NCBI RefSeq assembly: GCF_040529335.1
Contig: NZ_CP159534.1
Location: 186,001-250,000, forward strand
DNA: 64,000 bases
From: Streptomyces sp. HUAS MG91
Lineage (GTDB): Bacteria; Actinomycetota; Actinomycetes; Streptomycetales; Streptomycetaceae
Direction: 5' to 3'
In this document: positions 4,627-30,256 of the stretch, piece by piece
Numbering within the stretch: the first letter of the stretch is position 1
How the letters are laid out: the number at the start of each line of letters is the position of its first letter
Notes under the pieces: generated by a model
Database searches by the model: none
What the model saw: only the letters and a program-made list of their open reading frames with translations
What the model was told of the DNA's origin: nothing
Position numbers and translations under genes: made by a program

Positions 4627-4774
4627 GGCGACAGCGTGAGTCTCCTGGCTCTCGGGTCCACGCTCGTCCCGGCCTTCCCACCCGCGCGGGGCAGTGGCTC
4701 GTCGGGATCCGCTCGCCGATCACAGTGGCGGTACCGCACCGGATTCGCACCGGTTTCCTCGGGCGGCTGTCGCC
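4627..4774 (-). promoter_or_regulatory. cobalamin (AdoCbl-type) riboswitch
   Basis: Read on the minus strand, the region has the B12 riboswitch consensus: GGAAACCGGTGCGAATCCGG, then the B12-box-like CCGCCACTGTGATCGG, and a 3' part with GAGCCAGGAGACTC. The ends pair perfectly as a P1 stem: GGCGACAGC on one side (plus strand 4766-4774) and its exact complement (4627-4635). The first gene starts 50 nt downstream. A short GC hairpin (4595-4613) next to the ribosome site suggests translational control. In Streptomyces such elements repress downstream genes when adenosylcobalamin is abundant. Confidence 0.93.
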
Positions 4775-16943: not shown

Positions 16944-17516
16944 ATGACCGGAAGCAACCGCGGCCCCAACGACCCCCGGCGGCGCGAGCGGATCCTCGAC
17001 GCTGCCCTCGACGTCATCGCCGAACACGGCGCCATCAAGGTCACCTTCCGCCGGATCGCCGCGGCGGCCGGGGTACCGCTCGGTTCGCTCACGTACTACT
17101 TCGACGACATGCAGCATCTGCTCACGGAGGCCTTCACCCGCCTCGCCGAGACCGTGTCCAGCCGCTACGGGGCGCTGCTGGCCGCGGCGCGCACCCCCGA
17201 GGAGGCACAGGAGGCGGTGGTGGAGATCATCTGCGGCAAGGTCTGGGGCTCCGACCGCAATCTCCTGCTCAGCTACGAGCTGTACGCCTTCGCCACCCGT
17301 CATCCCGAACTCCGCGAGGTGATGCGCTCGTGGATGCAGGCCAGCCGGGACTCCCTCGCCCGGCACTTCGACCCGCTCACCGCCCGCGCCCTGGACGCGC
17401 TGGTGGAGGGCTTCTCCATCCACAACTCCGTCGACGCCCGGCCCACCGACCGCGCGGGCATCGCGGCGGTCGTCGGTGCCGTCGTCGCACGTTCCGCCGC
17501 CCCCGGCGTCGTCTAG
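16944..17516 (+). CDS. TetR family regulator of the divergent MFS gene
   Basis: A 190-residue protein. The HTH reads FRRIAAAAGVPLGSLTYYFDD near residues 34-54. The C-terminal domain (ELYAFATRHPELREVMRSWM) fits TetR regulators of drug-export genes. It is divergent from the MFS gene at 15629-16825 with a perfect palindrome between. The following ROK gene starts 13 bp after its stop and may be read from the same transcript. Confidence 0.88.
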   Translation: MTGSNRGPNDPRRRERILDAALDVIAEHGAIKVTFRRIAAAAGVPLGSLTYYFDDMQHLLTEAFTRLAETVSSRYGALLAAARTPEEAQEAVVEIICGKVWGSDRNLLLSYELYAFATRHPELREVMRSWMQASRDSLARHFDPLTARALDALVEGFSIHNSVDARPTDRAGIAAVVGAVVARSAAPGVV

Positions 17517-17529
17517 GGTCGACACCACG

Positions 17530-18786
17530 ATGAACAGCAACAACGCGTCCCCCGCCCCGCCCGCGAAGGCCGACAAGGCAAGCGTGCGGCGGCACAACCT
17601 GAGCCTGGTGCTGCGCACCGTCCACGACGAGGGCGAGGCGACCCGGGCCGGTGTCGCCGCACGCGTGGGGCTGACCCGGGCGGCGGTCTCCTCGCTCGTC
17701 GACCAGCTCCTGACGGAGGGGTTCCTCAGCGAGTGGGGCAAGACGTTCAGCGGGCAGGCGGGCCGCCCGGGCACCGTCCTGAAGGTCGCCCGCAGCGGCC
17801 CCGCGGGACTCGGCGTCGAGATCAACATCGACTACGTGGCCGTGTGCGTCGTCGATCTCGCTGGTACCGACCGGGTCCGACTGGTCGAGCGGATGGACAA
17901 CCGCGGCGCGGCGCCGGCCACCGTCCTCAACCAGGCCGCCCGGATCGCCGCGCGGGCCGTCGCCTCCGCCACCGAGCAGGAACTCCGTCCGGTGGCCGCC
18001 GAGTTGGCGCTGCCCGGTCTGGTCTCCGGCGGTACGGTGCGGCAGGCACCCAACCTGGGGTGGAACCGGGTTCCGGTTGAGGGCCTGTTCGCCCAGGCGC
18101 TCAGCACGCTGCGGCCCGAGCATCGCGCGCTCCCGGTGAGCGCGGACAACGAGGCGAATCTCGCGGCGATGGCCGAGCTGTGGTTCGCCACGGCCGACGA
18201 CGACCGCACGCCGGTGAACAGCTTCGTCTACCTCACCGGCGAGATCGGTGTCGGCGGCGCGCTGGTGCTGAACGGTCAACTGCTGCGCGGCGCCCACGGG
18301 TTCGCGGGCGAGATCGGCCATCTGGTGGTCGACCCCGACGGGCCCCCGTGCAGCTGCGGCGCGCGCGGCTGCCTGGAGCAGTACGCGGGCCAGGCGGCGC
18401 TGCTGCGGGCCGCCGGCCTCGACGAGAAGGCGGGCGCGGCGGGCGTCGCGGAGCTGGAGGCGCGGGCGCGGGCCGGCCGGCCGCGCGCGCTCCAGGCCCT
18501 GGAGGAGGCCGGGCGGCGGCTCGGCCGGGTGCTGTCGGGAGCGGTGAACCTGCTGGACCCGGACGCGGTGATCCTGGGCGGCTCCTTCCGGGAGCTGAAG
18601 CCGTGGCTGGCGCCCGCCGCGGACGCGGAGCTGACGGCGCGGGTGGTGTCGGGCCTCTGGACGCCCGGCAACGGACGGCTGCGGGCGTCGTCCTCGTCCG
18701 GCGACGCGGCGCGCGGCGCTGCGGCCCATGTGGTGCGCGAGGTGCTGGCGGACCCGGCGGCGTACGCGGAGCCGGGGAAGGACTGA
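17530..18786 (+). CDS. ROK family transcriptional regulator/sugar kinase-like protein
   Basis: A 418-residue protein. The N-terminal winged helix is GEATRAGVAARVGLTRAAVSSLVDQLL near residues 36-62. The C-terminal ROK domain has the zinc motif CSCGARGCLEQYAG (CxCGxxGCxE) and the EIGHLVVDPDG signature with His. ATG 17530 is preferred. Such regulators respond to sugars, and the nearby sugar-acid and xylose operons are possible targets, although none is directly adjacent. It could act on the xylAB promoters (inference only). Confidence 0.88.
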   Translation: MNSNNASPAPPAKADKASVRRHNLSLVLRTVHDEGEATRAGVAARVGLTRAAVSSLVDQLLTEGFLSEWGKTFSGQAGRPGTVLKVARSGPAGLGVEINIDYVAVCVVDLAGTDRVRLVERMDNRGAAPATVLNQAARIAARAVASATEQELRPVAAELALPGLVSGGTVRQAPNLGWNRVPVEGLFAQALSTLRPEHRALPVSADNEANLAAMAELWFATADDDRTPVNSFVYLTGEIGVGGALVLNGQLLRGAHGFAGEIGHLVVDPDGPPCSCGARGCLEQYAGQAALLRAAGLDEKAGAAGVAELEARARAGRPRALQALEEAGRRLGRVLSGAVNLLDPDAVILGGSFRELKPWLAPAADAELTARVVSGLWTPGNGRLRASSSSGDAARGAAAHVVREVLADPAAYAEPGKD

Positions 18787-18859: not shown

Positions 18860-19498
18860 TCAGCCGATGCTCTCCTTCAGCCGCGCGACATTGGCCCGCA
18901 CGTCCCCCTTGGCGAGATCGCTGCCGATGCTGACGGTGAAGGCGCCGGCCGCGAGCCACTGCGCGGCGTTGTCGACACCGACGCCGCCGGTGGCCATGAT
19001 CCTGGCGCCCGGCAGGACGGACAGGAGCGACTTCAGATAGCCGGTCCCGCCGATGTTCGCGGGGAAGAGCTTCGCCACCCCGCGCCCGGCCGCGATCCGC
19101 AGCTCGCTCGGGGTGAAGCCGCCCTCGACGAGGAGCCGTCCCGCCCCGTCGGCGACCGGGCGGACCTCCGGGACCTGGAAGGGGCTGACGAGGAAGTGCG
19201 CCCCGGCGGCGAGGGCCCGCTCGGCGATCTCGGGCGAGGTGACGGTCCCCAGGCCCAGCGTGATCCCGGGCTCCTGCCGCGACCAGGTCTCCACCAGCTT
19301 CTCCCAGCCGGGTGTGGTGGCCGTGAACTCGAAGGCGGTGATGCCGGACTCGATCAGGGTGCGGGCCATCCGGTCGGCCGCGTCGGCGTCGGCCTCGCGG
19401 ACGGTCGGGGTGACGCGGGCCAGGCGCAGCCGCTCGATGACGTCGGGGACGGCCGGGACGTCGGGGTTCATGGGTGTCTCCGTACGGTGCTCTGTCAT
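18860..19498 (-). CDS. KDPG/KHG-type aldolase (2-dehydro-3-deoxy-phosphosugar-acid aldolase)
   Basis: A 212-residue class I aldolase of the Eda/DgaF type. Glu57 lies in FEFTATTP and the Schiff-base Lys143 in VAKLFPAN. GLGTVTS and FLVSPFQVPE are family signatures. It would cleave a 2-keto-3-deoxy-phosphosugar acid to pyruvate and a triose phosphate. It is the last gene of the nine-gene minus-strand operon, and its start overlaps the HPr stop (ATGA). In the dga pathway of Salmonella, an aldolase of this kind acts directly after the PLP ammonia-lyase, as the gene order here also implies. Confidence 0.85.
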   Translation of the reverse strand: MTEHRTETPMNPDVPAVPDVIERLRLARVTPTVREADADAADRMARTLIESGITAFEFTATTPGWEKLVETWSRQEPGITLGLGTVTSPEIAERALAAGAHFLVSPFQVPEVRPVADGAGRLLVEGGFTPSELRIAAGRGVAKLFPANIGGTGYLKSLLSVLPGARIMATGGVGVDNAAQWLAAGAFTVSIGSDLAKGDVRANVARLKESIG

Positions 19499-19758
19499 GC
19501 CGGGGCCGCGATGCGCGCGAGGGCGTCCAGGGTGGACTCGGCGTCGGTGCCACTGGCGCGCAACACGATGGCGTCGCCGCAGCGGATGTTGAGGGTCATC
19601 AGCGACAGGACGCTGCGGGCGGGCACCTCGGTGCCGTCCTCGCGGGCGACGGTCACCTCGGCGGCGGCGCGGGCTGCGGTCTGAGCGAAGGCGGCAGCGG
19701 GGCGGGCGTGCAGGCCGGCCTCCTCGGTGACGACCAGGCGGCGTTCGACGACGGTCAT
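19495..19758 (-). CDS. HPr family phosphocarrier protein
   Basis: An 87-residue protein with the HPr active site GLHARPAAAF, where His17 is the phosphorylated residue. Ser49 in RSVLSLM matches the position of Ser46 of Bacillus HPr. It overlaps both neighbours by 4 bp, so it is a true member of the operon. Streptomyces also has a general ptsH elsewhere in the genome (known biology). A dedicated copy here suggests PEP-dependent phosphoryl transfer to the unusual transporter encoded upstream. Confidence 0.92.
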   Translation of the reverse strand: MTVVERRLVVTEEAGLHARPAAAFAQTAARAAAEVTVAREDGTEVPARSVLSLMTLNIRCGDAIVLRASGTDAESTLDALARIAAPA

Positions 19759-20855
19759 CGGGCTCCTCCCTCGACCAGCGCGGTCAGCCGGTCCACGAGG
19801 TGGTCCTCCTCGTCGGGGCGCAGCGGGCGCGGGTCGATCAGCAGTCGGCCCGTCACCGCGAGGTGGTCCCTCAAGTGGACGCCCGTAGAAGCGAGTTCGG
19901 AGGCGAGCGTGGCCGCGTCCCGGCCTGCCGCCGCCGGGTCCACGGTCAGTTCGGTGCGGTGGATGGCGCGGCCGGCCTCGTCGCCGACGACCCGGGTGGT
20001 AATGCCGGGCAGGTCGGCGAGGCGCGCGGCCAGCTTCTCCATGCGCGCGCGGTGTCCGCCCGGCTCGGCCGTGCCGTAGTCGCGCAGCGCCTGGACGAGG
20101 CCGAACAGGGTCTCCTTGCCGACCTTCATGGGGCGGGCGATGCCGCCGTACTGGGCGCGGCAGGCGGCGATGCGTGCGGCGCTGCCGCAGATCATGCCGG
20201 AGGCGGGTCCGCCCACGGCCTTGCCGCCGCTGTAGACGACGAGGTCGGCGCCGGTGGCGGGCCAGTGCTTCAGGTCCTCCTCGGCGGCCGCGTCGACGAT
20301 GACGGGGATGTCGTGGCGGCGGCCGACCTCGATCGTCTCCGCGAGGGAGACCATGCCCTTCTGCACGGCGTGGTGGGACTGGACGTAGAGGAGGGCGGCC
20401 GTGCGCGGGCCGATCGCGCCCGCCAGGTGGTCTGCGGTGACCTTGTTCGCGGAGCCGACCTCGACGGGGCGGCCGCCGCCGAGGGCGATCATCTGGCGGA
20501 TCGGGGCGCCGAAGTAGACGGAGTGGCCGCGCGGCAGGATCACCTCGCACGGCGCGCCGCCGGGGTCGGGCAGCGCCTCGACGCGGCTCACGTCGGTGCC
20601 CGCGATCAGGGAGGCGACCGCGATGGCGACGCCGGAGGCGGCTCCGGTGGTGGGGCAGCCGGCCTCGGTGCCGGTGGCGCGGGCGATCTCCCGGCCGACG
20701 GCGTCCAGCAGGTCGTCCATGACGACGTGGTGGCGGGCCGCGTCGCCCATGGCGGCGATGACGCCGTCGCCGAGGACGCTGCCGCCGAGTGCGGTCATCC
20801 GGCCGCTGGCGTTGATGGCGGGCGGGACCCCGAGGTCGTGGTGGAGGGTGGGCAC
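19755..20855 (-). CDS. DgaE/SelA-like PLP-dependent ammonia-lyase
   Basis: A 366-residue fold-type I PLP enzyme. It resembles the SelA/DgaE group: INASGRMTALGGS near the start, then DAAAEEDLKHWPATG and the Lys motif VYSGGKAVGGP, where the Lys forms the aldimine. DgaE of Salmonella eliminates ammonia from D-glucosaminate-6-phosphate to give a 2-keto-3-deoxy-6-phosphosugar acid, the substrate of the aldolase two genes on. GTG 20855 has GGAG 5 nt upstream. It overlaps HPr by 4 bp. It is not a true selenocysteine synthase, because no tRNA-Sec genes are nearby and the family context differs. Confidence 0.82.
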   Translation of the reverse strand: MPTLHHDLGVPPAINASGRMTALGGSVLGDGVIAAMGDAARHHVVMDDLLDAVGREIARATGTEAGCPTTGAASGVAIAVASLIAGTDVSRVEALPDPGGAPCEVILPRGHSVYFGAPIRQMIALGGGRPVEVGSANKVTADHLAGAIGPRTAALLYVQSHHAVQKGMVSLAETIEVGRRHDIPVIVDAAAEEDLKHWPATGADLVVYSGGKAVGGPASGMICGSAARIAACRAQYGGIARPMKVGKETLFGLVQALRDYGTAEPGGHRARMEKLAARLADLPGITTRVVGDEAGRAIHRTELTVDPAAAGRDAATLASELASTGVHLRDHLAVTGRLLIDPRPLRPDEEDHLVDRLTALVEGGAR

Positions 20856-20893
20856 ACGGTCTCCTTGCGCTGCGGGTACGGGAGCGGGGGCGG

Positions 20894-21631
20894 TCACTTG
20901 CCGGGGATGGGGAAGAAGAGCCCGGCGAGCATCGCGCCGATGATGGCGCCGCCGGTCAGCGGCTTCTGCCACTTGTAGAAGAGGAGGGCGCCGATGGTGG
21001 AGCCGAGCCCCACGGGCAGGGACGCGGTCGCGGCGGAGATGATGACGAGCGGTCCGAGATAGCGGCCCGCGGAGTTGCCCGCGCCCATCATCACGTCGGC
21101 GCCGAAGGTGGAGGTGCCGCCCGTGGAGTTCACGGTGGCGCGCCGGATGACGACGATCGCGATGCCGATCAGGCCGCCGAGCAGCGCGCCGACCGGGACC
21201 GCGAGCCAGAAGTGCTGGAGCGGGGCGGTGAATCCGGCGCCGAGGAGCATGGCGGGGATGCCGATGCCCACGCCGGTCTGCAGGGAGCCGCCGATGTCGA
21301 GGATGCCGACCATGGGGCCCTCGATGATGCGGGCGAACAGGAAGCCCGCGCCGAACGCGGCGGCGGCGCCGTAACTGCCGTTCTGCATACCGGCCTTGAG
21401 CATGGAGGCGACGGCGACGTCGTTGAACACCCCGGTGTCGTAGACGTAGTAGAGGTGGGTGCCGGTGAAGATGCCCGCGGCCAGGCACGCCACGAAGACG
21501 GGGAAGGCCCACTCGGCCAGCCAGAAGCTGCCCTCGCCCGGCACCCTGCTGAGGAAGCCGCTCCTGGCCTCGGGCGCACCGGAGTTCTGTGCGGGTATGC
21601 CGCCCGCGGCGGCGGTGGATGTGTCGGTCAT
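20894..21631 (-). CDS. DUF4310 family membrane protein (EF_0833-like)
   Basis: A 245-residue integral membrane protein with about six to seven hydrophobic segments. Recognisable blocks are GTHLYYVYDTGVFNDVAVAS, GPMVGILDIGGSLQTGVGIG and GGAIIGAMLAGLFFPIPGK. The family occurs only in the conserved EF_0829-EF_0839 neighbourhood. It is probably one half of the membrane channel together with the DUF4311 protein. No experimental function is known to me. Confidence 0.82.
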   Translation of the reverse strand: MTDTSTAAAGGIPAQNSGAPEARSGFLSRVPGEGSFWLAEWAFPVFVACLAAGIFTGTHLYYVYDTGVFNDVAVASMLKAGMQNGSYGAAAAFGAGFLFARIIEGPMVGILDIGGSLQTGVGIGIPAMLLGAGFTAPLQHFWLAVPVGALLGGLIGIAIVVIRRATVNSTGGTSTFGADVMMGAGNSAGRYLGPLVIISAATASLPVGLGSTIGALLFYKWQKPLTGGAIIGAMLAGLFFPIPGK

Positions 21632-21644
21632 GTCGCTGCCTGCC

Positions 21645-22433
21645 TCACTGGGGCTTGGTGCCGGTGGTGTCGTGGAGCTGCGTGAGCCAGTGCGGGATGT
21701 GCACCTTCATCTGCTCCAGCAGGGTGATGTCGACGCCGCGCAGGAAGGTGCTGGCCACGAACAGGGCGATGACGACGCCGGCCAGCGACTTGGTGACCTT
21801 GGTCCAGCCGAGGTCGTCGACGCCCTTGCCGATGACGATGCCGAGCACGATGCCGGGGACCGCGTTGCCCATCACCAGGTGACCGAGTCCGCCGAGGACC
21901 GTGCCCCAGGCGCCGGTGCGGCGGCCCGCGTCCACGGCCGCCATCCAGAAGATGATCGGCATGACGGGGTTGATCAGCCACTCCGACGCCGGTCCCAGCA
22001 CCTGGGCGGCGACCTCCTGGAGGGAGTGCGGGATGGAGGCGGCCGTCGTGTTGAGGAGGGTGACGAGGAGCATGCCGACGACGGTGCCGGTCAGCGCCAT
22101 CCGGCGCGGGTTGTGCAGCGTCGCGTCGAGGTTGCGGTTCTTCGCCATGGCGACGGCCGCCGACCAGTGCGGCACGATGCGGTGGTCCACGTCCGAGGTC
22201 AGCGCGCCGGTTCCGACCGCGCTCGACCAGGCGTTGAAGAGGAAGCCGAGGCCGAAGGAGAAGTGGGCGACGGGGTCGTTCTGACAGGCGTTCAGCTCGC
22301 CCAGGGTGCGGAAGGCACCCATGCCCTGGACCTTCGGCGCGTGGAACATGCGGGCCACGCCCGCGCTCGCGCCGAAGCCGATGAGGCCGCCGATGACGAG
22401 CGACTCCAGGAGGACGGTGAGGGTTTCGTTCAT
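21645..22433 (-). CDS. DUF4311 family membrane protein (EF_0832-like)
   Basis: A 262-residue membrane protein with several hydrophobic segments (ESLVIGGLIGFGASAGVARM, VVGMLLVTLLNTTAASI, VVIALFVASTFLRGVDI). Conserved polar loops include NACQNDPVAHFSFGLGFLFN and SDVDHRIVPHWSAAVAMAKN, which could bind substrate. It lies 13 bp from the DUF4310 gene. It is probably the larger partner of a two-subunit permease (inference from constant co-occurrence). Confidence 0.82.
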   Translation of the reverse strand: MNETLTVLLESLVIGGLIGFGASAGVARMFHAPKVQGMGAFRTLGELNACQNDPVAHFSFGLGFLFNAWSSAVGTGALTSDVDHRIVPHWSAAVAMAKNRNLDATLHNPRRMALTGTVVGMLLVTLLNTTAASIPHSLQEVAAQVLGPASEWLINPVMPIIFWMAAVDAGRRTGAWGTVLGGLGHLVMGNAVPGIVLGIVIGKGVDDLGWTKVTKSLAGVVIALFVASTFLRGVDITLLEQMKVHIPHWLTQLHDTTGTKPQ

Positions 22434-22437
22434 CGGG

Positions 22438-22773
22438 TCACCTCATGTGCAGGGCGTGCTGGAGCGACGAGAGCCGCTCCTCGCGCACCGTGAAGTCGAC
22501 GGCGTCCAGGTCGAGGGAGGCCACCTGGACCTCGACGCGCAGCGTGATCTCGAAGCGCCGGCGGGTGCGGGGGAAGAGCAGGCCGAGGAACCGCTCGGTC
22601 CAGCGGTGCTCCACGGCGGACACCACGTCGAGTTCCAGGGGCTCCACGCGGAAGTCGACGCCTTCGGTGCGCTTGGCGACCTCGGACTGCACCTGGCCGA
22701 TGGCGGTGGCGAACGCCTTCTCCCGGGTGGGGCCCGACCCGCTGAGCCGCAGGGTGTGCCGGGACTGCTTCAC
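22438..22773 (-). CDS. DUF4312 family cytoplasmic protein (EF_0831-like)
   Basis: A 111-residue soluble protein (AFATAIGQVQSEVAKRTEGV, PLELDVVSAVEHRWTERFLG, TRRRFEITLRVEVQV). It has an alternating strand/helix pattern and no membrane segment. The family is specific to this operon type. Its small size and position suggest an accessory subunit of the transporter, perhaps a IIA/IIB-like partner. It overlaps the SFCGS gene by 4 bp. Confidence 0.8.
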   Translation of the reverse strand: MKQSRHTLRLSGSGPTREKAFATAIGQVQSEVAKRTEGVDFRVEPLELDVVSAVEHRWTERFLGLLFPRTRRRFEITLRVEVQVASLDLDAVDFTVREERLSSLQHALHMR

Positions 22774-23138
22774 GAGGCCTCCTTGGCGAGCTTCTTCAGG
22801 AGCGCCTCGGTGACCTTGAAGCCGAGTTCCTCGCTGTCGAGGAACCCGAAGCCGAGGACGGTGCGGCCCTGTTCCACGGCGGCCACCCCGGCCTGCGCCG
22901 AGCGCATGCCGAACTCGATGTCGTGGCCGTACTTGGCCTTGGCGGTGACGGCTCCGGCGCCGCCGCTGCCGCAGAAGGAGATGCCGAGCTGCGCTCCCTC
23001 GGCGTCCATCACGTCGCCCACCTTCATGTCGGCGCCGGGGCCCGGGATGAGGACGGGCTCGCCGCCCGCGGCGCGTACGCCGTCGGCGACCGCCTGGCCC
23101 TTGCCGAGCCGGTGTCCGATCACGATCTTGACTGTCAT
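22770..23138 (-). CDS. glycine-rich SFCGS family protein (EF_0830-like)
   Basis: A 122-residue protein with the family signature SFCGSGGAGA, where Cys56 sits in a Gly-rich loop. The loop resembles the phosphocysteine loop of PTS IIB domains, although it lies mid-protein rather than at the N-terminus. I chose ATG 23138 over an upstream ATG because AGGGAG lies 8 nt before it and the sequence then starts MTVKIVIGHRLGKG, as in the family. Role unproven; a IIB-like phosphoryl carrier is my inference. Confidence 0.8.
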   Translation of the reverse strand: MTVKIVIGHRLGKGQAVADGVRAAGGEPVLIPGPGADMKVGDVMDAEGAQLGISFCGSGGAGAVTAKAKYGHDIEFGMRSAQAGVAAVEQGRTVLGFGFLDSEELGFKVTEALLKKLAKEAS

Positions 23139-23175
23139 GGCGGTGCTCCCTGGTGTGTCGGTCATGGCTGAGCTG

Positions 23176-23571
23176 TCATGCCTGCTGGCTGGTCTGGTGC
23201 TGGAGCTGTGCCGCCGCCTCGAAGTGGAGGGCGAGCAGCAGGACTTCGGTGTCGTGTGCGGCGAATCCGCGGGGCGCGCAGAAGGCGTCGACGAGGGTGC
23301 GGACGGCCGCCATGCGCCCGGGGGCGATCTCGGCGCCGAGTTCCTCGTCGAGCGCGTCCAGGTGCTCGTCCACGCGGACCCGCCGGACGAAGGCGAGGGC
23401 GTGCACGGCGAGCGCCAGCGAGCGGATGTCGTCGAAGCCGATGCCGCAGGTCTCCGCGTAGACCTGGGCGAGCGGCAGGAACTCCGTCAGGTCGGCGCGG
23501 TCCGCGTCGGTGACGGGGCTGGACGAGTCCCCTACGGTCGTCGCGAGTCGCTCGATGAGGGGGGTGGTCAT
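23176..23571 (-). CDS. PRD-domain-like protein (EF_0829-like)
   Basis: A 131-residue helical protein resembling a single PTS-regulation domain, with histidines at His57 (LALAVHALAF) and His116 (LLLALHFEAA) in positions typical of PRD phosphorylation sites. It carries no DNA-binding or EII domain, so it may regulate the transporter or enzymes directly rather than transcription. It lies 37 bp upstream of the SFCGS gene in the same operon. Confidence 0.75.
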   Translation of the reverse strand: MTTPLIERLATTVGDSSSPVTDADRADLTEFLPLAQVYAETCGIGFDDIRSLALAVHALAFVRRVRVDEHLDALDEELGAEIAPGRMAAVRTLVDAFCAPRGFAAHDTEVLLLALHFEAAAQLQHQTSQQA

Positions 23572-23695
23572 GCACGGGCCTCTCGGTGGTTCGGTCGGTG
23601 GTTCGTGTCGTACGGCGCGGGCTCGGGTGCGTGGGGCACGTCCCGTGGCGTCCGGCGCGGGGCGGGTCCCGGCCGGGCGGCGGTCCGTACGGTGA

Positions 23696-24853
23696 TCAGG
23701 GGGCGCCGACGACGGGGTGCGCCCGCCCGGCGCGCACGGCGGCCACGGCGGTGAGCCGGGTGGTGCCGGTGCGGGTGGCGCCCTCGGCGTCGGTCAGGGT
23801 GACGGGTCCCTCGGTCGGCCGCAGCAGCGAAAGGTCCGCCGCGGAGCCGGGCCGCAGGGTGCCCAGCTCGTCCTCCATGCCGATCACTTGGGCGGCGTGC
23901 AGGGTCGAGCAGCGGATCGCCTCGTGCGGGGTCAGTCCGAGGGCGACGAGTTTGGTGAGGGTCTCCGCGAGGGAGTGGACGGGGCCCTCGACGTTGCGGT
24001 GGTGCAGGTCGGTGCTGATGGTGTGCGGGGTGAAGCCCGCCGCGAGGGCGCGTTCGGCGGTGGCGAAGCTGAGGCTGGCGCTGCCGTGTCCGACGTCGAG
24101 GCGGACGCCGCGGGCGACGGCGGCACGCGCCTGGGGTTCGCTGCCGAAGAGGCCGCCGGGCTTGCCGTGGAAGGCATGGGTGACGACGTCGCCCTCGCCG
24201 AGGAGGTCGAGGACGTCGCCGAGGTGCGGGGGTTCGTTGCCGACGTGCACCATCACGGGCCGGCCGACCCGGGCGGCCACGCGCTTGGCGGCGCGCAGCG
24301 GGGCGAGCCCGGAGTCGCCGAGGACCGAGGAGCTCATCCGGATCTTGAGGCCGCGCACCCGCTCGGGGTGTGCGCGCAGCAGCTTCTCCGTGGCCGCCTC
24401 GTCGATGTCGTCGGGGCCGTGGCTGAGTTCCCGCGGCCCGTGGACCAGGCCGTGCCGGGAGATGTTGAGCCAGCTCAGGACGCGGGTGGCGGCCGGTTCG
24501 ACAACGTTATCGGCGAAGTCGTCCCAGTGGTCGCTGCCGCAACTGCCCGCGTCCACCACGGTGGTGACGCCCTGGCGCACCCCGATCTCGTCGGCGGCCA
24601 CGCCGAGGTAGGTGCCGGGGGCGTAGACGTGCGTGTGGAGGTCGATGAGGCCGGGGGCGACGAGCAGCCCGGAGGCGTCGAGGGTCTCCTCTCCGGCGAG
24701 GGTGCCGGGGGCGCCGACGGCGGCGATCCGTCCGTCGCGCACGGCCAGGTCCCCCGGTACGGGAGCGGCCTGAAGGGGATCGGCCAGCAGGCCGCCCGCC
24801 ACGACGAGATCGAATCGTTGCGGGTGCACGGAGGAAGGTCCGTGTCCAGCCAT
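23696..24853 (-). CDS. amidohydrolase/deacetylase family metallohydrolase (EF_0837-like)
   Basis: A 385-residue dihydroorotase-like enzyme. Metal-site motifs are LIDLHTHVYAPG (HxH), a candidate carbamylated Lys in GLKIRMS, VHVGNEPP, THAFHGKPG and the catalytic Asp in STDLHH. The GSAADLSLL segment near the C-terminus is typical of amidohydrolases. ATG 24853 is chosen because upstream in-frame codons extend into the IclR promoter region. As first gene of the operon it could remove an N-acyl group before the PLP ammonia-lyase step (inference). A 124-bp gap separates it from the PRD gene. Confidence 0.82.
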   Translation of the reverse strand: MAGHGPSSVHPQRFDLVVAGGLLADPLQAAPVPGDLAVRDGRIAAVGAPGTLAGEETLDASGLLVAPGLIDLHTHVYAPGTYLGVAADEIGVRQGVTTVVDAGSCGSDHWDDFADNVVEPAATRVLSWLNISRHGLVHGPRELSHGPDDIDEAATEKLLRAHPERVRGLKIRMSSSVLGDSGLAPLRAAKRVAARVGRPVMVHVGNEPPHLGDVLDLLGEGDVVTHAFHGKPGGLFGSEPQARAAVARGVRLDVGHGSASLSFATAERALAAGFTPHTISTDLHHRNVEGPVHSLAETLTKLVALGLTPHEAIRCSTLHAAQVIGMEDELGTLRPGSAADLSLLRPTEGPVTLTDAEGATRTGTTRLTAVAAVRAGRAHPVVGAP

Positions 24854-24955
24854 GGACGGCCGCCTTTCACGAGCGTGAGAGTGGGTGCGTGGAGCATCCG
24901 GTCGCGCAGCCACGGACACCCGGGGGCTGTGCACGACCGAAGGACGCCACCCCGT

Positions 24956-25020
24956 TCCGTGGAGTAGAATGGCGTTCCGCTGTGCGGATCGATTGGCAAC
25001 ATAGTCCGCTTCTCCACGGA
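24956..25020. promoter_or_regulatory. divergent control region of the IclR gene and the sugar-acid operon
   Basis: The region contains a 9-bp inverted repeat TCCGTGGAG (24956-24964) and CTCCACGGA (25012-25020). Between them lies the palindrome TCCGC-TGT-GCGGA (24976-24988), and GTTCCG occurs twice (24954 and 24974). A -10-like TAGAAT lies at 24965-24970. These are candidate IclR operators. The exact bound sequence cannot be told from one copy. Confidence 0.5.
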
Positions 25021-25026
25021 GGGTCA

Positions 25027-25773
25027 ATGGAAGCGAGCAAGCCCGCGAATTCCGTCGCCAAGGCGCTGCATGTGCTGCATGCGGTGGCCCGCGCCGACGG
25101 ACCGCACCGGCTGGGCGACATCGCGGAGCGCTCCGGGGTCCCGAAGGCGACCGCCCACCGGGTGCTGGCGACGCTCGTCGAGGAGGGGTACGTGGCGGCC
25201 GACGGCGAGGGGCGCTACGGCTGCGGCGTCCAGCTCCGCGCCCTGGCCGCCCAGGTCCTCGCGGACGACGCCGTGGGCATCGACGCCGTGCTGCGCGCCC
25301 TCCAGCAGCGCCTCGGGCAGGCCGTCCACCTGGCGGTGCTCAGCGGTGACCACGCGACGTACACGCACAAGGTCGACCCGGGACACGCCTACCGGATCGC
25401 GACCGACGTCGGGACGCCGCTCCCGCTGCACGCCACGGCCGCGGGCAAGGCCCTGCTCGCCCATCTGCCGCCGGGCGAGGCGGCGGACATCCTCGACCGG
25501 ACCGGCCTGCCCACGCGCACCCCGCGCACCCATACCGACCGCGCGGCGCTCGTCGAGGAGCTCGCCGCGATCCGCGCCGCCGGGTACGCGGTCGACTACG
25601 AGGAGGCGGACGAATCCATCTGCTCGCTCGCCGCGCCGGTGCTCGACGCCGACGGCACGGCGGTCGGCGCCGTCTCCGTCTCCTCGCTCACCTTCCTGGT
25701 CACCGAGGCCCAACTGCCCGGGTTCGCACCGGCCGTCCGGCAGGCGGCGCAGGACGTGTCACGGCGCCTGTGA
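25027..25773 (+). CDS. IclR family transcriptional regulator
   Basis: A 248-residue protein. The N-terminal winged HTH is LGDIAERSGVPKATAHRVLATLVEEGYV (residues about 28-55). The C-terminal IclR effector domain contains GKALLAHLP and the signature AAPVLDADGTAVGAVSVSS. ATG 25027 is preferred over an in-frame start inside the promoter region. It is divergent from the nine-gene operon, whose regulator it most likely is, probably sensing a sugar-acid intermediate. Confidence 0.9.
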   Translation: MEASKPANSVAKALHVLHAVARADGPHRLGDIAERSGVPKATAHRVLATLVEEGYVAADGEGRYGCGVQLRALAAQVLADDAVGIDAVLRALQQRLGQAVHLAVLSGDHATYTHKVDPGHAYRIATDVGTPLPLHATAAGKALLAHLPPGEAADILDRTGLPTRTPRTHTDRAALVEELAAIRAAGYAVDYEEADESICSLAAPVLDADGTAVGAVSVSSLTFLVTEAQLPGFAPAVRQAAQDVSRRL

Positions 25774-25840: not shown

Positions 25841-27220
25841 TCAGCCCCGGTGGGCGGCGATCAGCTTCCGGTACCAGTGGTAGCTGTCCTTCGGGGTGCG
25901 CTCCTGGGTGTCGTAGTCGACGCGGACGATGCCGAATCGCTTGGCATAGCCCAGCGCCCACTCGAAGTTGTCGAGCAGCGACCAGACGTAGTAGCCGCGC
26001 ACGTCGACGCCCGCGTCCATGGCGGTGCGCAGGGCGGTGAGGTGGTCGTGGAGGTACGTGACCCGGTCCGCGTCGTGGACGGCGCCGTCGGCGGCGACCT
26101 CGTCGTGCTCCGCGGTGCCGTTCTCGGTGATGTGGATCGGCGGCAGCGCGTCGCCGTAGCGCTCCTTGAGGCCGGTGAGCAGCTGGGTGAACGTCTCGGG
26201 GACGACCGGCCAGCCCATGGAGTTGCGCCGCACGTCGGGCCAGGGGCGCTCCGCGTACCGGTTGTCGGTGGCGACGCGGACGGCCGGGTCGGGCTCCCGG
26301 TGCGGGGCGTCGGCGACCAGGGTGGGCCGGTAGTAGTTGACGCCGAGGAAGTCCAGCGGCTGCGCGATGAGGTCGAGGTCGCCGTCGAGCCGGAAGTCCT
26401 GGCGGGTGATCAGCTCGCCCCAGGTGTCCTCGTCCGATGCGGGGTAGCGGCCCGCGAGGATCGGGTCGGTCCACACCAGGTTGTGCTGGGTGTCGGCGCG
26501 CAGCGCGGCGCCGCGGTCGGCGGCCGAGTCGGTGGCCGGGACGTTGAAGTCCGGGTTGAGGGTGATGCCGACCTCGCGCACCCCGGCCGCGCGCAGCTCC
26601 TTGACGGCGAGTCCGTGGCCGACGAGGAGATGGTGGGCCGCGGCGAGGGCGGGGGTGCCCTCCTGGGCGCCGGGCGCGTGCCGCCCCACCGAGTAGCCGA
26701 GGAACGCGCTGCACCAGGGCTCGTTGAGGGTGATCCAGCGCGGCACGCGGTCGGCGAGGTGCCCGGCCACGATCGCCGTGTACTCGGCGAACCGCTCGGC
26801 GGTCTCGCGCACCCGCCAGCCGCCACGGTCCTCCAGTGCCTGCGGCAGGTCCCAGTGGTAGAGGGTGGCGGCGGGCTCGATGCCCGCTTCCAGCAGCTCG
26901 TCGACGAGCCGCGAGTAGAAGTCCAGGCCCTTCTGGTTGGCCGGGCCCTGTCCCGTCGGCTGGATGCGCGGCCAGGCTATGGAGAAGCGGTAGGACTCGA
27001 CGCCGAGGTCGCGCAGCAGCGCCACGTCCTCGGGGTAGCGGTGGTAGTGGTCGCAGGCCACGTCGCCGGTGTCGCCGCCGTCCGTGCGGCCGGGCGTGTG
27101 GCTGTAGACGTCCCAGATGGACGGGCCGCGGCCGTCCTCGTTCGCCGCGCCCTCGATCTGGTAGGAGGCGGTGGCCGCGCCGAACACGAAGCCTTCGGGG
27201 AAAACGGGCAAGTCACTCAT
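25841..27220 (-). CDS. GH1 family beta-glucosidase
   Basis: A 459-residue glycoside hydrolase family 1 enzyme. The acid/base Glu167 lies in TLNEPW and the nucleophile Glu366 in ITENG. The N-terminal motif FVFGAATASYQIEGA is the GH1 signature. No signal peptide, so it is cytoplasmic and acts on imported disaccharides or short oligosaccharides. It starts 8 bp after the last ABC permease gene on the same strand, so it hydrolyses what that transporter imports. With xylA/xylB and the alpha-xylosidase nearby, substrates with glucosyl or xylosyl units are likely. Confidence 0.93.
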   Translation of the reverse strand: MSDLPVFPEGFVFGAATASYQIEGAANEDGRGPSIWDVYSHTPGRTDGGDTGDVACDHYHRYPEDVALLRDLGVESYRFSIAWPRIQPTGQGPANQKGLDFYSRLVDELLEAGIEPAATLYHWDLPQALEDRGGWRVRETAERFAEYTAIVAGHLADRVPRWITLNEPWCSAFLGYSVGRHAPGAQEGTPALAAAHHLLVGHGLAVKELRAAGVREVGITLNPDFNVPATDSAADRGAALRADTQHNLVWTDPILAGRYPASDEDTWGELITRQDFRLDGDLDLIAQPLDFLGVNYYRPTLVADAPHREPDPAVRVATDNRYAERPWPDVRRNSMGWPVVPETFTQLLTGLKERYGDALPPIHITENGTAEHDEVAADGAVHDADRVTYLHDHLTALRTAMDAGVDVRGYYVWSLLDNFEWALGYAKRFGIVRVDYDTQERTPKDSYHWYRKLIAAHRG

Positions 27221-27228
27221 GGAAAGCC

Positions 27229-28059
27229 TTACTTGACGGATCCGCCGGTGATACCGGCAGCAATGTACTTCTGGGCGAGGACGAGCAGCACGGCGGCCGG
27301 GATCGCCGACAGGACGGACGCGGCCATGACGGAGCCCCAGTCGCCGACGTGGGCGCCGATGTACTGGTAGATGCCGAGCGTGACGGGCTTGACGTCGTCG
27401 GTGGTGTTGAGCGTGAGGGCGAACATGAAGTCGCTCCACGCGTACAGGAAGGAGAACAGGCCTGCCGTGATCAGCGAGTTGCGGCTCATCGGCAGCACGA
27501 CCTGGACGAACGTGCGCAGCTTGCCCGCGCCGTCGACCTCGGCCGCCTCGATGACCTCCTTGGGGATGGCCACCATGAACGAGCGCATCAGGACGATGGC
27601 GAAGGGGATGCCGAGCGAGGCGTCGGCGAGCATCAGGCCGAAGTAGGAGTTGACCAGGCCGAGATCGACGTACGCGCTGTAGAGGGCGTTGGCGATGACG
27701 ATGCCCGGCACCATCTGCGTGATGAGCGTGCCGAAGACGATGGACTTGGTGCCCGGCAGCCGGAACTGGGCGAGCCCGTACGCGGCCGGCGCGGCGACCG
27801 CCAGACAGATGACGACGGCGCCGAGCGCGACGGCGAGCGAGGTCAGCAGGTGGGCGCCCTGCTCGCTGATGGCGGAGGAGAAGCCGGACAGGTCGAGCGA
27901 GTGCGGCACGGGCGAGACGTCGAGGAGTCCCGACTCGGGCTGGAGCGCCGTGTTGATCATCCAGTACAGCGGGAACAGCATCACGAGCAGGATGACGACG
28001 CCGGCGACGGTGGCGCCCCAGCGGCGCTTCGGTCCGTTGGTCGCGGAGGCGGTTGCCAT
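27229..28059 (-). CDS. carbohydrate ABC transporter permease (MalG type)
   Basis: A 276-residue permease with six hydrophobic segments. The ABC-permease EAA loop reads EVIEAAEVDGAGKLRTFVQV (EAA---G consensus), which contacts a shared MsiK-like ATPase. No ATPase gene is nearby, as is normal in Streptomyces, where MsiK serves many sugar systems. ATG 28059 lies 5 bp after the stop of the first permease gene. Confidence 0.93.
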   Translation of the reverse strand: MATASATNGPKRRWGATVAGVVILLVMLFPLYWMINTALQPESGLLDVSPVPHSLDLSGFSSAISEQGAHLLTSLAVALGAVVICLAVAAPAAYGLAQFRLPGTKSIVFGTLITQMVPGIVIANALYSAYVDLGLVNSYFGLMLADASLGIPFAIVLMRSFMVAIPKEVIEAAEVDGAGKLRTFVQVVLPMSRNSLITAGLFSFLYAWSDFMFALTLNTTDDVKPVTLGIYQYIGAHVGDWGSVMAASVLSAIPAAVLLVLAQKYIAAGITGGSVK

Positions 28060-28064
28060 GCCGG

Positions 28065-29015
28065 TCACTTCCCCTCGGAGCGGTTGGCCCGCAGGTAGAA
28101 CACCGCGAAGACGGCGGAGATCAGGATCAGGATGTTGCCGACGACGGCGCCCGCGCCGAAGTCGAGCTGGACGAAGGAGTTCTGGTACGTGAGCGTGCCG
28201 AGCGTCTGCGTGGAGTCGGCGGGCCCGCCGTCGGTCAGGGCCAGGATCAGGTCGAGGATCTTCACCGTCGACATGAAGCCGAGCACGAGGACGACCGTGA
28301 TGACGGGCTTCAGCAGCGGCAGCGTGATGGAGCGGAAGGTGCGCCAGGCGGAGGCGCCGTCCAGGGACGCGGCCTCGTACAGCTCCTTGGGGATCTCCTG
28401 GAGTCCGCCGTAGAGGATCACCATGTTGAACGGGATGCCGATCCAGATGTTCACCATGATCACGGAGAACAGGGCCATGCCGGGGCTGGTCAGCCACGGG
28501 GTGTGGCCGCCGAGGCCGAGGGTGTCGAGGAAGGAGTTCAGGACGCCCGTGTCCTGGTCGAGGATGCGGCGCCAGACGATGCCGGAGACGACCATGGGGA
28601 CGAGCCAGGGCAGCAGGATCAGCGAGCGCAGGAACCCGTTGAGGGGGAACCGCTTCGTGAAGAAGACGGCGAGCGCGAGGCCGATGCCGAACTGGCCGAT
28701 CAGCGAGCCGATGGTGAAGACGATGGTGTGCCAGAGCGCCTTGCCGAAGAGGTCGTCGTGGAAGACCTTGCTCCAGTTGTCGGTGCCGTTGAAGGGCGAC
28801 TTGCCGTCGAAGAACGTGGACGGCGAGAAGTCCTGGAAGCTCATCACGACGTTGCGGACGAGCGGGTAGCCGAAGAACAGCAGCATGAAGACGACGGCGG
28901 GGGCGATGAAGCCCCACTGGGAGAGTCTGCGGCGGCGCCGCGTGTCGCGCTTCTTCACCGGGGTGGCGGGGGCCGGCCGGGTGGCGGGGGCGGCGGAGGC
29001 CGTGGTGGTCGACAT
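28065..29015 (-). CDS. carbohydrate ABC transporter permease (MalF type)
   Basis: A 316-residue permease with a charged cytoplasmic N-terminus (PVKKRDTRRRRRLSQ) and six hydrophobic segments. The EAA loop is ELYEAASLDGASAWRTFRSI. It forms the membrane channel with the MalG-type subunit. Its start lies 14 bp after the binding-protein gene stop. Confidence 0.93.
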   Translation of the reverse strand: MSTTTASAAPATRPAPATPVKKRDTRRRRRLSQWGFIAPAVVFMLLFFGYPLVRNVVMSFQDFSPSTFFDGKSPFNGTDNWSKVFHDDLFGKALWHTIVFTIGSLIGQFGIGLALAVFFTKRFPLNGFLRSLILLPWLVPMVVSGIVWRRILDQDTGVLNSFLDTLGLGGHTPWLTSPGMALFSVIMVNIWIGIPFNMVILYGGLQEIPKELYEAASLDGASAWRTFRSITLPLLKPVITVVLVLGFMSTVKILDLILALTDGGPADSTQTLGTLTYQNSFVQLDFGAGAVVGNILILISAVFAVFYLRANRSEGK

Positions 29016-29029
29016 GTTCGTGATACCCC

Positions 29030-30256
29030 TCAGTTCCCGCTCGTGGCGCGCGCCTGCGCCTTCTTCAGCGCGTCGGCGCTGTTCTGGCCGGTGAGCGCGG
29101 ACTGGAAGGCGCTCTGGAGGGCCAGCGACACGGACGACCAGCCTGCTCCGACCTTCGCGGTGCGCGAGCGGGCGGTGGCCACCTGGTCGGCGAGCGCGTC
29201 GAGTTCGGGCACTTCCTTGCGCCAGACGGCGGCCGCCTTCTCGTTCGCGGGCACCATCCAGCTGTTGCGCGCGTAGGTGATCTGCTCCTTCTCGGAGGAC
29301 ATGCACCCGATGATCTTCGCGGCGGTCTTCTCGCGGGCCGTGTCGTCCGTCCTGGGGACGGTGAGGACGGCGCCGCCGAGCGGACCGACGGAGTCGTCGC
29401 CGGCCCGGGGCACCGGGATCTGCGCGATGCCCCAGTGCAGGGACTTCTTGGTGTTGAGCGTCTCGACCTGCCAGGGACCGTTGATCATCATCGCGGCGTT
29501 GCCGGCCATGAACTGGTCGTTGACGTCGGCCTGCGTCCAGTTGACCGTCGACTTGGACAGCGAGCCGTCCTTGAGGAGGCCCTTCCAGTAGTCGAGGGCG
29601 TCGGCGACCTGCTTGCTGTCGAGGTCGGTCTCGTCGCCGCCGTTGGACCACATGAACGGGGTGAACTGGAAGACGCCGTCCTCGGCGCCGCCCGCGCTCA
29701 GGGCGATGCCGTACTGCTTGCCCCGGGTGAGCTTCTTCGCGGTCTCCTGCATCTCGGCCCAGGTGGTGGGGACCGCGAGGCCGGCCTTCTTCAGGACGTC
29801 CTTGTTGTAGAAGAGGGCGAGGGTGTTCACCGTGCGCGCGGCGCCGTAGTACGTGCCCTTGTAGGAGCCGAAGTCGACGATGCCCTTCGGGATGTCCTGC
29901 GTGGACAGCCCGAGCGACTTCAGGTCGACCAGGCCTCCCGCCTCGGCGAACGTCGGCATCTCGGAGGCGTCGAACTGGATGACGTCCGGGAGCGACTTCG
30001 ACGACGCCATCCGCAGCGACTTCGTCATGACCTGTGAGGCCGGGACGCTCTGCTGCTCGATGGTGATCCCCAGCCGGGCGCTGCACCGCTTCAGGGTGGC
30101 GGCGTCCCAGCCGTGGTAGGAGTCGTCGGTCGAGGAGTTGAGGACGGTGTAGACGTCGTCGTCGCGCTGGCTGCCGCAGCCCGCGAGTGCCGCGGAGGCG
30201 ACGAGGACGGAGACAACGGTGAGCGGGATCACGGCCCGCCGGCGTGCTGCTGTCAC
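29030..30256 (-). CDS. sugar ABC transporter substrate-binding lipoprotein
   Basis: A 408-residue extracellular solute-binding protein (family 1). The lipoprotein signal is MTAARRRAVIPLTVVSVLVA followed by the lipobox LAGC (Cys27). Further signatures are PDVIQFDASEMPTFAEAGGL, LFYNKDVLKKAGL and PTTWAEM. The GTG start at 30256 is used. It is the first gene of the transporter/beta-glucosidase operon. Specificity is probably a xyloglucan- or xylo-oligosaccharide-derived sugar (inference from neighbours). Confidence 0.93.
   Translation of the reverse strand: MTAARRRAVIPLTVVSVLVASAALAGCGSQRDDDVYTVLNSSTDDSYHGWDAATLKRCSARLGITIEQQSVPASQVMTKSLRMASSKSLPDVIQFDASEMPTFAEAGGLVDLKSLGLSTQDIPKGIVDFGSYKGTYYGAARTVNTLALFYNKDVLKKAGLAVPTTWAEMQETAKKLTRGKQYGIALSAGGAEDGVFQFTPFMWSNGGDETDLDSKQVADALDYWKGLLKDGSLSKSTVNWTQADVNDQFMAGNAAMMINGPWQVETLNTKKSLHWGIAQIPVPRAGDDSVGPLGGAVLTVPRTDDTAREKTAAKIIGCMSSEKEQITYARNSWMVPANEKAAAVWRKEVPELDALADQVATARSRTAKVGAGWSSVSLALQSAFQSALTGQNSADALKKAQARATSGN

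What the first reader, a model, noticed from the sequence alone, without database searches (positions are those of the whole stretch)
18860..25773. Nine-gene EF_0829-EF_0839-type operon: a possible non-canonical PTS for an amino sugar acid
The order amidohydrolase, PRD, SFCGS, DUF4312, DUF4311, DUF4310, DgaE-like PLP lyase, HPr, KDPG-type aldolase, with a divergent IclR, matches a neighbourhood known in Enterococcus and Salmonella whose transport subunits lack a known mechanism. The enzymes suggest a path: N-deacylation, loss of ammonia, aldol cleavage to pyruvate. HPr inside the operon implies PEP-driven phosphorylation, yet no recognisable EIIA/B/C exists, so the DUF and SFCGS proteins would form a new phosphotransferase-type transporter.
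Basis: partly seen in the sequence, partly recalled or inferred. Interest (0 to 1): 0.88.

Follow-up and report, generated by a model that had tools for sequence, protein, structure and literature searches.

The report
Possible new sugar-acid phosphorylating uptake system
A nine-gene bacterial operon of largely unnamed proteins looks like a machine that imports and phosphorylates an amino sugar acid with phosphate passed from the cell's sugar-transport phosphate relay, although its parts resemble none of the known parts of such transporters; if true it would be a new class of this well-studied transport system.

Summary
The operon is real. PRD-SFCGS-DUF4312-DUF4311-DUF4310 is a fixed five-gene core, complete and in order in 77 of 79 related loci. 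HPr lies in 29 of 79, EI in 9 of 79. New evidence that the core supplies phosphate: among 174 de-duplicated DgaE loci a PfkB kinase stands in 2 of 84 with the core as sole recognised supply and 0 of 12 with a mannose-type PTS, but in 17 of 18 with neither and 34 of 36 with only a MupG/EIIC route. The DgaE phosphate-binding arginines are kept in 90 of 90 compared, so the substrate should be phosphorylated first. PRD His57 (46 of 46 aligned) and SFCGS Cys65 (48 of 48 aligned) are invariant. Correction: SFCGS has the RpiB/LacAB fold, not an EIIB fold; DUF4312 is tentatively dodecin-like; DUF4310/4311 match no EIIC tested. Best reading: a PTS-like uptake system for N-acetyl-D-glucosaminate. Phosphotransfer and substrate are inferred. 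Independent kinase contrasts are few, and LPMO co-occurrence gave no support outside one clade.

The parts
18860..19498 (-). KDPG/KHG-type aldolase (PF01081), last gene
   Evidence: E 4.1e-29; among solved natural enzymes 1wa3/1vlw (KDPG aldolase) are nearest
19495..19758 (-). HPr phosphocarrier with a GLHARP active-site His
   Evidence: E 1.1e-24; sequence
19755..20855 (-). DgaE-like PLP ammonia lyase
   Evidence: TIGR01437 over cut-off; His162/163, Lys213 and Arg301/332/346 of the Salmonella enzyme kept
20894..21631 (-). DUF4310 membrane protein
   Evidence: PF14187 E 1.7e-92
21645..22433 (-). DUF4311 membrane protein
   Evidence: PF14188 E 3.5e-106
22438..22773 (-). DUF4312, small protein with predicted beta-alpha-beta-beta (dodecin-like) fold
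   Evidence: E 4.6e-24; no invariant His or Cys in 38 rows
22770..23165 (-). SFCGS protein, RpiB/LacAB-like fold with invariant Cys65
   Evidence: E 2.2e-48; probable start at Met10 (22770-23138)
23176..23571 (-). stand-alone PRD domain protein, His57 and His116
23696..24853 (-). amidohydrolase/deacetylase-type metallohydrolase, first gene
   Evidence: PRK09237 over cut-off; relatives of 8wzy, 2ogj, 2ics
24953..24991 (.). conserved intergenic footprint CGTTCCG...CGTTCCGnnnnnCGGATCG, presumed IclR operator
   Evidence: whole in 6 of 8 aligned Streptomyces relatives, partly covered in L004, not covered in L006; function inferred
25027..25773 (+). divergent IclR-family regulator
   Evidence: PF01614 and PF09339

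Best explanation
The operon takes up an N-acylated amino sugar acid, most likely N-acetyl-D-glucosaminate, and phosphorylates it at C6 on the way in. Shown by sequence: the parts, their fixed order, the invariant His and Cys, the HPr (and in some relatives EI) genes in the loci, and the rarity of a linked kinase. Inferred: phosphate flows EI -> HPr -> PRD (His57/His116) -> SFCGS (Cys65, in an RpiB-like sugar-phosphate fold) -> substrate held by the DUF4311/DUF4310 membrane pair, with DUF4312 as an accessory part. The 6-phosphate is then deacetylated by the amidohydrolase, deaminated by the DgaE-like lyase to KDPG, and cleaved by the aldolase to pyruvate and glyceraldehyde-3-phosphate. IclR controls the operon from the divergent promoter.
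For: Kinase displacement: in 250 evenly drawn Bacilli genomes there are 37 DgaE places; 17 of 17 in the 62-100% identity group have the whole core and no PfkB, 20 of 20 in the 40-46% group have PfkB and no core (35 places fetched, the other two are L028 and L035). Over 174 de-duplicated DgaE loci: PfkB in 2 of 84 (core only), 20 of 24 (core plus MupG/EIIC), 17 of 18 (no core, MupG/EIIC or mannose PTS), 34 of 36 (MupG/EIIC, no core), 0 of 12 (mannose-type PTS). The mannose-type loci are an internal control: a PTS supply goes without a linked kinase. The amidohydrolase is in 162 of 162 loci without, and 0 of 12 with, the mannose-type PTS, the type that in Salmonella carries free glucosaminate (PMC9529869, passages): so the amidohydrolase fits a deacylase of an N-acylated substrate. 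One kinase-type locus has a GntP (gluconate-type) permease (L144). DgaE phosphate arginines 90 of 90. HPr in 36 of 84 core-only loci and 0 of 90 others; EI in 9 of 79 core loci and somewhere in 29 of 29 core genomes tested. PRD His57, Arg64, Glu109 invariant in the 46 rows aligned, His116 in at least 90%; SFCGS Cys65 48 of 48 aligned. Four loci (L016, L051, L053, L065) hold the core without amidohydrolase or DgaE, so the core is a unit of its own.
Against: No phosphotransfer, transport or growth has been measured. SFCGS has an RpiB-like fold, for which a phosphocysteine would be unprecedented as far as I recall. DUF4310/4311 match no known EIIC. 48 of 84 core-only loci and 24 of 24 core loci with MupG/EIIC have no linked HPr. 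The kinase pattern rests on few independent events: 6 supported phylogenetic contrasts, kinase goes the opposite way in 3.4, does not differ in 2.6, same way in 0; sign test median p 0.25 (an earlier 101-row tree gave 3 contrasts). An unlinked kinase is not excluded. 20 of 24 core loci with MupG/EIIC do carry a kinase, so core and kinase do not exclude each other as such. LPMO genes: 13 of 28 core genomes; in Enterococcaceae no association outside one clade (8/19/15/41, p 0.80).
Confidence: 0.55

Rival explanations
1. The core is an ordinary permease that the PTS only regulates: HPr phosphorylates the PRD, which gates DUF4311/4310; SFCGS senses a sugar phosphate through its RpiB-like pocket; the substrate is phosphorylated by a kinase encoded elsewhere.
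For: PRDs are known as regulatory phosphorylation domains (established knowledge); SFCGS has a sugar-phosphate isomerase fold; no EIIC fold matched; a core lies next to a separate kinase unit in L023 and L025.
Against: No linked kinase in 82 of 84 core-only loci, as in 12 of 12 mannose-PTS loci, while 51 of 54 loci with neither have one. Co-encoded EI suits energy supply better than a switch.
Confidence: 0.28
2. SFCGS is a catabolic sugar-phosphate isomerase, and the rest is a permease.
Against: In the alignment the RpiB histidine/asparagine of the HNN motif has no counterpart, and the C-terminal tail, where the phosphate-binding arginines are recalled to lie, is missing; SFCGS stays with the membrane genes even where the catabolic genes are absent (L016, L051, L053, L065).
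Confidence: 0.08
3. The core is a signalling assembly (PRD, SFCGS, membrane pair) that senses the sugar acid and controls the operon; uptake is by another transporter.
For: PRD is a signalling domain; many core loci carry a PRD-type regulator (cluster c0 in 56 of 79 loci; three members scanned).
Against: No other transporter gene lies within the window operon, and several loci without the core hold a mannose-type PTS, a GntP permease or an EIIC instead; in other kinase-type loci I recognised no transporter.
Confidence: 0.07

Closest known systems
D-glucosaminate utilisation by DgaABCD-EF of Salmonella (mannose-family PTS)
   Same: DgaE-type lyase with the same phosphate-binding and catalytic residues, then a KDPG aldolase; PTS supply without linked kinase
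   Different: Transporter made of recognised EII parts; no amidohydrolase (0 of 12 loci of this type); acts on free glucosaminate (PMC9529869, passages)
ong pathway for GlcNAc1A in Pseudoalteromonas (PMC9537276)
   Same: Deacetylation, deamination and KDPG formation from N-acetylglucosaminate (passages)
   Different: SSS-family transporter, KDG kinase late in the path, enzymes act on unphosphorylated substrate; its deacetylase OngB (9kb1) matches ours only weakly (E 1.2e-07, residues 13-108)
EF_0829/AHA_3910 gene neighbourhood (TIGR03577-TIGR03583)
   Same: Same core families and order as in the loci
   Different: Here Eda-type aldolase and IclR; TIGR03582, TIGR03583 and (narrowly) TIGR03578 below cut-off; the models are hypothetical equivalogs without stated function in the listing
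Ribose-5-phosphate isomerase B / LacAB family
   Same: Fold of SFCGS and the Cys-Gly-rich loop
   Different: Other catalytic and phosphate-binding residues not kept (roles recalled); linked to membrane proteins and a PRD
E. coli yhfS-yhfZ cluster
   Same: Stand-alone PRD (YhfY), small protein with a weak LacAB_rpiB match (YhfU, E 0.065), membrane protein (YhfT), PLP enzyme
   Different: YhfT and YhfU show no significant relation to DUF4311/4310 or SFCGS (YhfT and YhfU as single sequences); no DUF4312 annotated

Membership tests
PEP:sugar phosphotransferase system | EI and HPr available in the cell | tested here: met
   HPr in the operon; EI in 29 of 29 genomes incl. G000; EI inside 9 of 79 loci
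PEP:sugar phosphotransferase system | Recognisable EIIA/EIIB/EIIC(D) components | tested here: inconclusive
   No Pfam EII match; hhalign shows no relation to mannose EIIC/EIID, one GFL EIIC set or PF02302-type EIIBs; no structure match, but the model is of moderate confidence
PEP:sugar phosphotransferase system | Conserved candidate phospho-acceptor His and Cys in the operon's small proteins | tested here: met
   PRD His57 46 of 46 rows, SFCGS Cys65 48 of 48 rows
PEP:sugar phosphotransferase system | Phosphate transfer from PEP to substrate | not testable with these tools
   needs biochemistry; indirect support from the kinase pattern
EF_0829/AHA_3910-type operon | Core families in conserved order | tested here: met
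   77 of 79 related loci in the same order
EF_0829/AHA_3910-type operon | All members over the curated NCBIfam cut-offs | tested here: not met
   TIGR03577, 03579, 03580 over; TIGR03578 89.2/89.65, TIGR03582 26.9/69.35, TIGR03583 326.1/432.15 under
RpiB/LacAB isomerases | Fold | tested here: met
   [not shown]
RpiB/LacAB isomerases | Catalytic Cys plus His/Asn and C-terminal phosphate arginines | tested here: not met
   Cys kept; the other sites not kept in the alignment (roles of the sites recalled)
[quoted passage not shown]
   but NF047797 356.3 bits against a cut-off of 600, and Arg226 is Ser in the window protein
Dodecin-like fold (DUF4312) | beta-alpha-beta-beta unit | tested here: inconclusive
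   [not shown]
Mannose-family PTS permease | EIIC/EIID homology of DUF4311/4310 | tested here: inconclusive
   hhalign probabilities 0.6-1.1%

The most novel reading that the evidence does not exclude
The PRD-SFCGS-DUF4312-DUF4311-DUF4310 set is a further, independently evolved class of PTS permease: a stand-alone PRD works as the EIIA, an RpiB-fold protein with an active-site cysteine works as the EIIB, and an unrelated membrane pair as EIIC/D, importing and phosphorylating N-acetyl-D-glucosaminate, the monomer left by oxidative chitin cleavage. It would give Gram-positive and some Gram-negative bacteria a phosphorylating route for a compound whose described route (ong) uses a symporter and a late kinase.
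Probability: 0.4. Interest if true: 0.9.

Novelty: new variant of a known kind. Interest (0 to 1): 0.74.

Why it matters
Four domain families of unknown function, found here in loci of Bacillota, Actinomycetota and Pseudomonadota, would gain a joint function that can be tested with one deletion series. A phosphotransfer route through a PRD and an RpiB-like fold would widen what counts as a PTS permease and show regulatory and isomerase folds recruited as phosphocarriers. It would also offer a route for oxidised chitin sugars in bacteria without close ong genes: two Aeromonas species had only distant or no matches to OngB/OngC (PMC11653859, passages), while the family names of this operon cite an Aeromonas locus (AHA_3910).

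Tried and rejected
Rejected: SFCGS as EIIB (hhalign 0.5% against 13 PF02302-type EIIBs; RpiB set 89.6%). LPMO co-occurrence as proof of a chitin source: 13 of 28 core genomes; Enterococcaceae, 105 genomes: 29 both, 20 core only, 15 LPMO only, 41 neither, p 0.001; but without one run of 22 genomes (G019, G097-G117) 8/19/15/41, p 0.80 (that these form a clade was judged from their order in the listing only). LPMO in the window's own genome was not searched. A homology of YhfT with DUF4311/4310 was not found. A simple 'core excludes kinase' rule: true in the Bacilli sample, but 20 of 24 core loci with MupG/EIIC have both. Gammaproteobacteria gave too few DgaE loci to test (1 of 369 genomes). Searches of PDB sequences with profiles of the membrane pair, DUF4312 and SFCGS found nothing meaningful. 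No carrier fold stood out among the 50 rows shown for DUF4310/4311, which tells little for a 604-residue model with pLDDT 77. Literature, by search listings only: DUF4310/4311/4312/SFCGS, 7 papers, none about these proteins by title; TIGR and Pfam numbers, 0 papers; EF_0829/EF_0830 with yhf names, 64 papers of which 20 were listed, none of those 20 with the EF names; two searches listed 1 and 2 papers on other subjects.
Full report
What is there. Nine minus-strand genes run from 24853 down to 18860, with a divergent IclR at 25027-25773. Family scans name them amidohydrolase, PRD, SFCGS, DUF4312, DUF4311, DUF4310, DgaE-like lyase, HPr and aldolase. From PRD to aldolase they overlap or nearly touch, so one transcript is likely. 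The window PRD alone scores weakly, but its family alignment (46 rows: window, 44 loci, E. coli YhfY) keeps the PRD histidine His57 in all and His116 in at least 90%. The intergenic region keeps a block with two CGTTCCG repeats followed by CGGATCG, whole in 6 of 8 aligned Streptomyces relatives, partly covered in one and not covered in one; I take it as the IclR operator. DUF4311 was found in only 2 of 293 genomes of the order, this one included.

The core. A scan of genome contigs with a DUF4311 alignment gave 79 distinct loci (the best of more than 500 relatives), whose titles name Actinomycetota, Bacillota and Pseudomonadota. PRD, SFCGS, DUF4312, DUF4311 and DUF4310 are complete and in that order in 77 of 79; L078 lacks a detected DUF4312 and L068 lacks PRD, SFCGS and DUF4312. 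Amidohydrolase is in 75 and DgaE in 74 of 79. Four loci (L016, L051, L053, L065) have the core without either, and two of these (L016, L051) still carry HPr. The core is therefore a unit, and the catabolic genes are its usual customers.

Link to the PTS. HPr is in 29 of 79 loci; the 34 HPr reading frames found keep the active histidine motif (GxHARP in 21, GIHSRP in the other 13); EI is in 9 of 79 (the domains of one, L028, checked). EI is present in 29 of 29 core genomes tested, and the window's genome has one. A regulator cluster c0 is in 56 of 79 loci; three members scanned carry HTH and PRD domains.

The kinase test. DgaE of Salmonella acts on glucosaminate-6-phosphate, and three arginines were placed near the phosphate by docking (PMC9529869, passages read). 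All three are kept in 74 of 74 core-type and 16 of 16 kinase-type enzymes compared, so in both the substrate should already be phosphorylated. Where does the phosphate come from? In 250 evenly drawn Bacilli genomes, 36 genomes have DgaE, at 37 places. I examined all 37 (35 fetched, some of them again loci; two, L028 and L035, already held): 17 of 17 of the higher-identity group have the core and no PfkB kinase; 20 of 20 of the lower group have PfkB and no core or HPr. Enterococcaceae give 94 DgaE places in 74 of 105 genomes, 46 within 9 kb of DUF4311 and 48 not; I fetched all 48 and 32 of the 46. Of the 48, 13 have a mannose-type EIIC and EIID and neither amidohydrolase nor kinase, 31 have PfkB, and 4 have neither (one of them on a 3.9-kb contig). 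Of the 32, 10 have the core alone and no kinase, 21 have the core with MupG (20 of them with an EIIC) and a kinase, and 1 has the core with an EIIC and no kinase. Pooled over 174 loci (184 with a DgaE of at least 330 residues, 10 with an identical DgaE dropped; shorter DgaE frames were left out): core only, 2 of 84 with kinase; core plus MupG/EIIC, 20 of 24; neither core, MupG/EIIC nor mannose PTS, 17 of 18; MupG/EIIC without core, 34 of 36; mannose PTS, 0 of 12. The two core-only exceptions, L023 and L025, have a separate amidohydrolase-DgaE-aldolase-PfkB-GntR unit next to a core. So the kinase is nearly always absent when the core, or a known PTS, is the only supply recognised. A MupG/EIIC route would free an unphosphorylated sugar acid from a disaccharide, which would explain why those loci need a kinase (inference).

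How strong. The counts are large, but the independent events are few: 6 supported contrasts on the tree (15 on all branches), with the kinase moving opposite in 3.4 on average, not differing in 2.6 and never the same way; the sign test cannot reach 0.05. The pooled set is not a random sample: 79 loci were chosen by DUF4311.

Substrate. The amidohydrolase is in 162 of 162 loci without, and 0 of 12 with, the mannose-type PTS. In Salmonella that type imports free glucosaminate (passages and reference title). Hence the amidohydrolase most likely removes an N-acyl group. Its nearest solved relatives are labelled dihydroorotase (8wzy, 2ogj) and adenine deaminase (2ics); a published activity of the 2ogj enzyme on acetylated alpha-acids is recalled, not seen. 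Neighbours of kinase-type loci include a GntP permease (L144), a GH20 enzyme (L139) and MupG, EIIC and SIS-domain genes as in MurNAc catabolism (L131). N-acetyl-D-glucosaminate, known from LPMO-cleaved chitin (PMC9537276, passages), fits best. LPMO co-occurrence did not support a chitin source: 13 of 28 core genomes and no association in Enterococcaceae outside one clade. Other sources, such as peptidoglycan fragments, remain open.

Verdict. The operon is not new to databases: its families bear EF_0829-type names. The literature searches made here listed no paper that describes a function (listings only, in part). The kinase pattern, the co-encoded EI, the RpiB-like fold of SFCGS and the conserved histidine and cysteine turn it into a concrete, testable proposal for a new class of PTS permease. 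Steps shown: parts, order, conservation, folds as predicted, kinase pattern. Steps inferred: every transfer of phosphate, the transport itself, the exact sugar.

Noticed in passing
L002:5936-13345: E. coli yhf cluster shows the same kind of set: stand-alone PRD (YhfY), a small protein with a weak RpiB match (YhfU) and a membrane protein (YhfT); it may be a second system of this sort. Homology of the membrane parts was not detected.
   Followed up: partly
control genome E. coli: The DUF4311 profile gives a sub-cut-off match somewhere in E. coli; its place was not shown and YhfT does not clearly explain it.
   Followed up: partly
[not shown]
   Followed up: no
L064:3885-9954 and L068:6559-11543: Lactococcus loci that look decayed: DgaE and DUF4312 are each in two frames in L064; PRD, SFCGS and DUF4312 are not found in L068, which keeps the kinase.
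   Followed up: no
window 4638-4760, - strand: Cobalamin riboswitch, 85.5 bits.
   Followed up: no
window 17476-18786 and 25841-30256: ROK-family regulator beside the operon, and on its other side a GH1 glycosidase and a solute-binding protein of an ABC transporter.
   Followed up: no
L141, L142, L131 and many Enterococcaceae loci: Amidohydrolase-DgaE-aldolase-PfkB units sit with PTS EIIC and MupG (6-phospho-N-acetylmuramidase family), suggesting a disaccharide with a sugar-acid end as another source.
   Followed up: partly
Enterococcus faecalis V583 (PMC7396535, passages): dgaE and dgaF are reported as duplicated in E. faecalis, which fits the two or three DgaE places seen in several Enterococcaceae genomes.
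   Followed up: no
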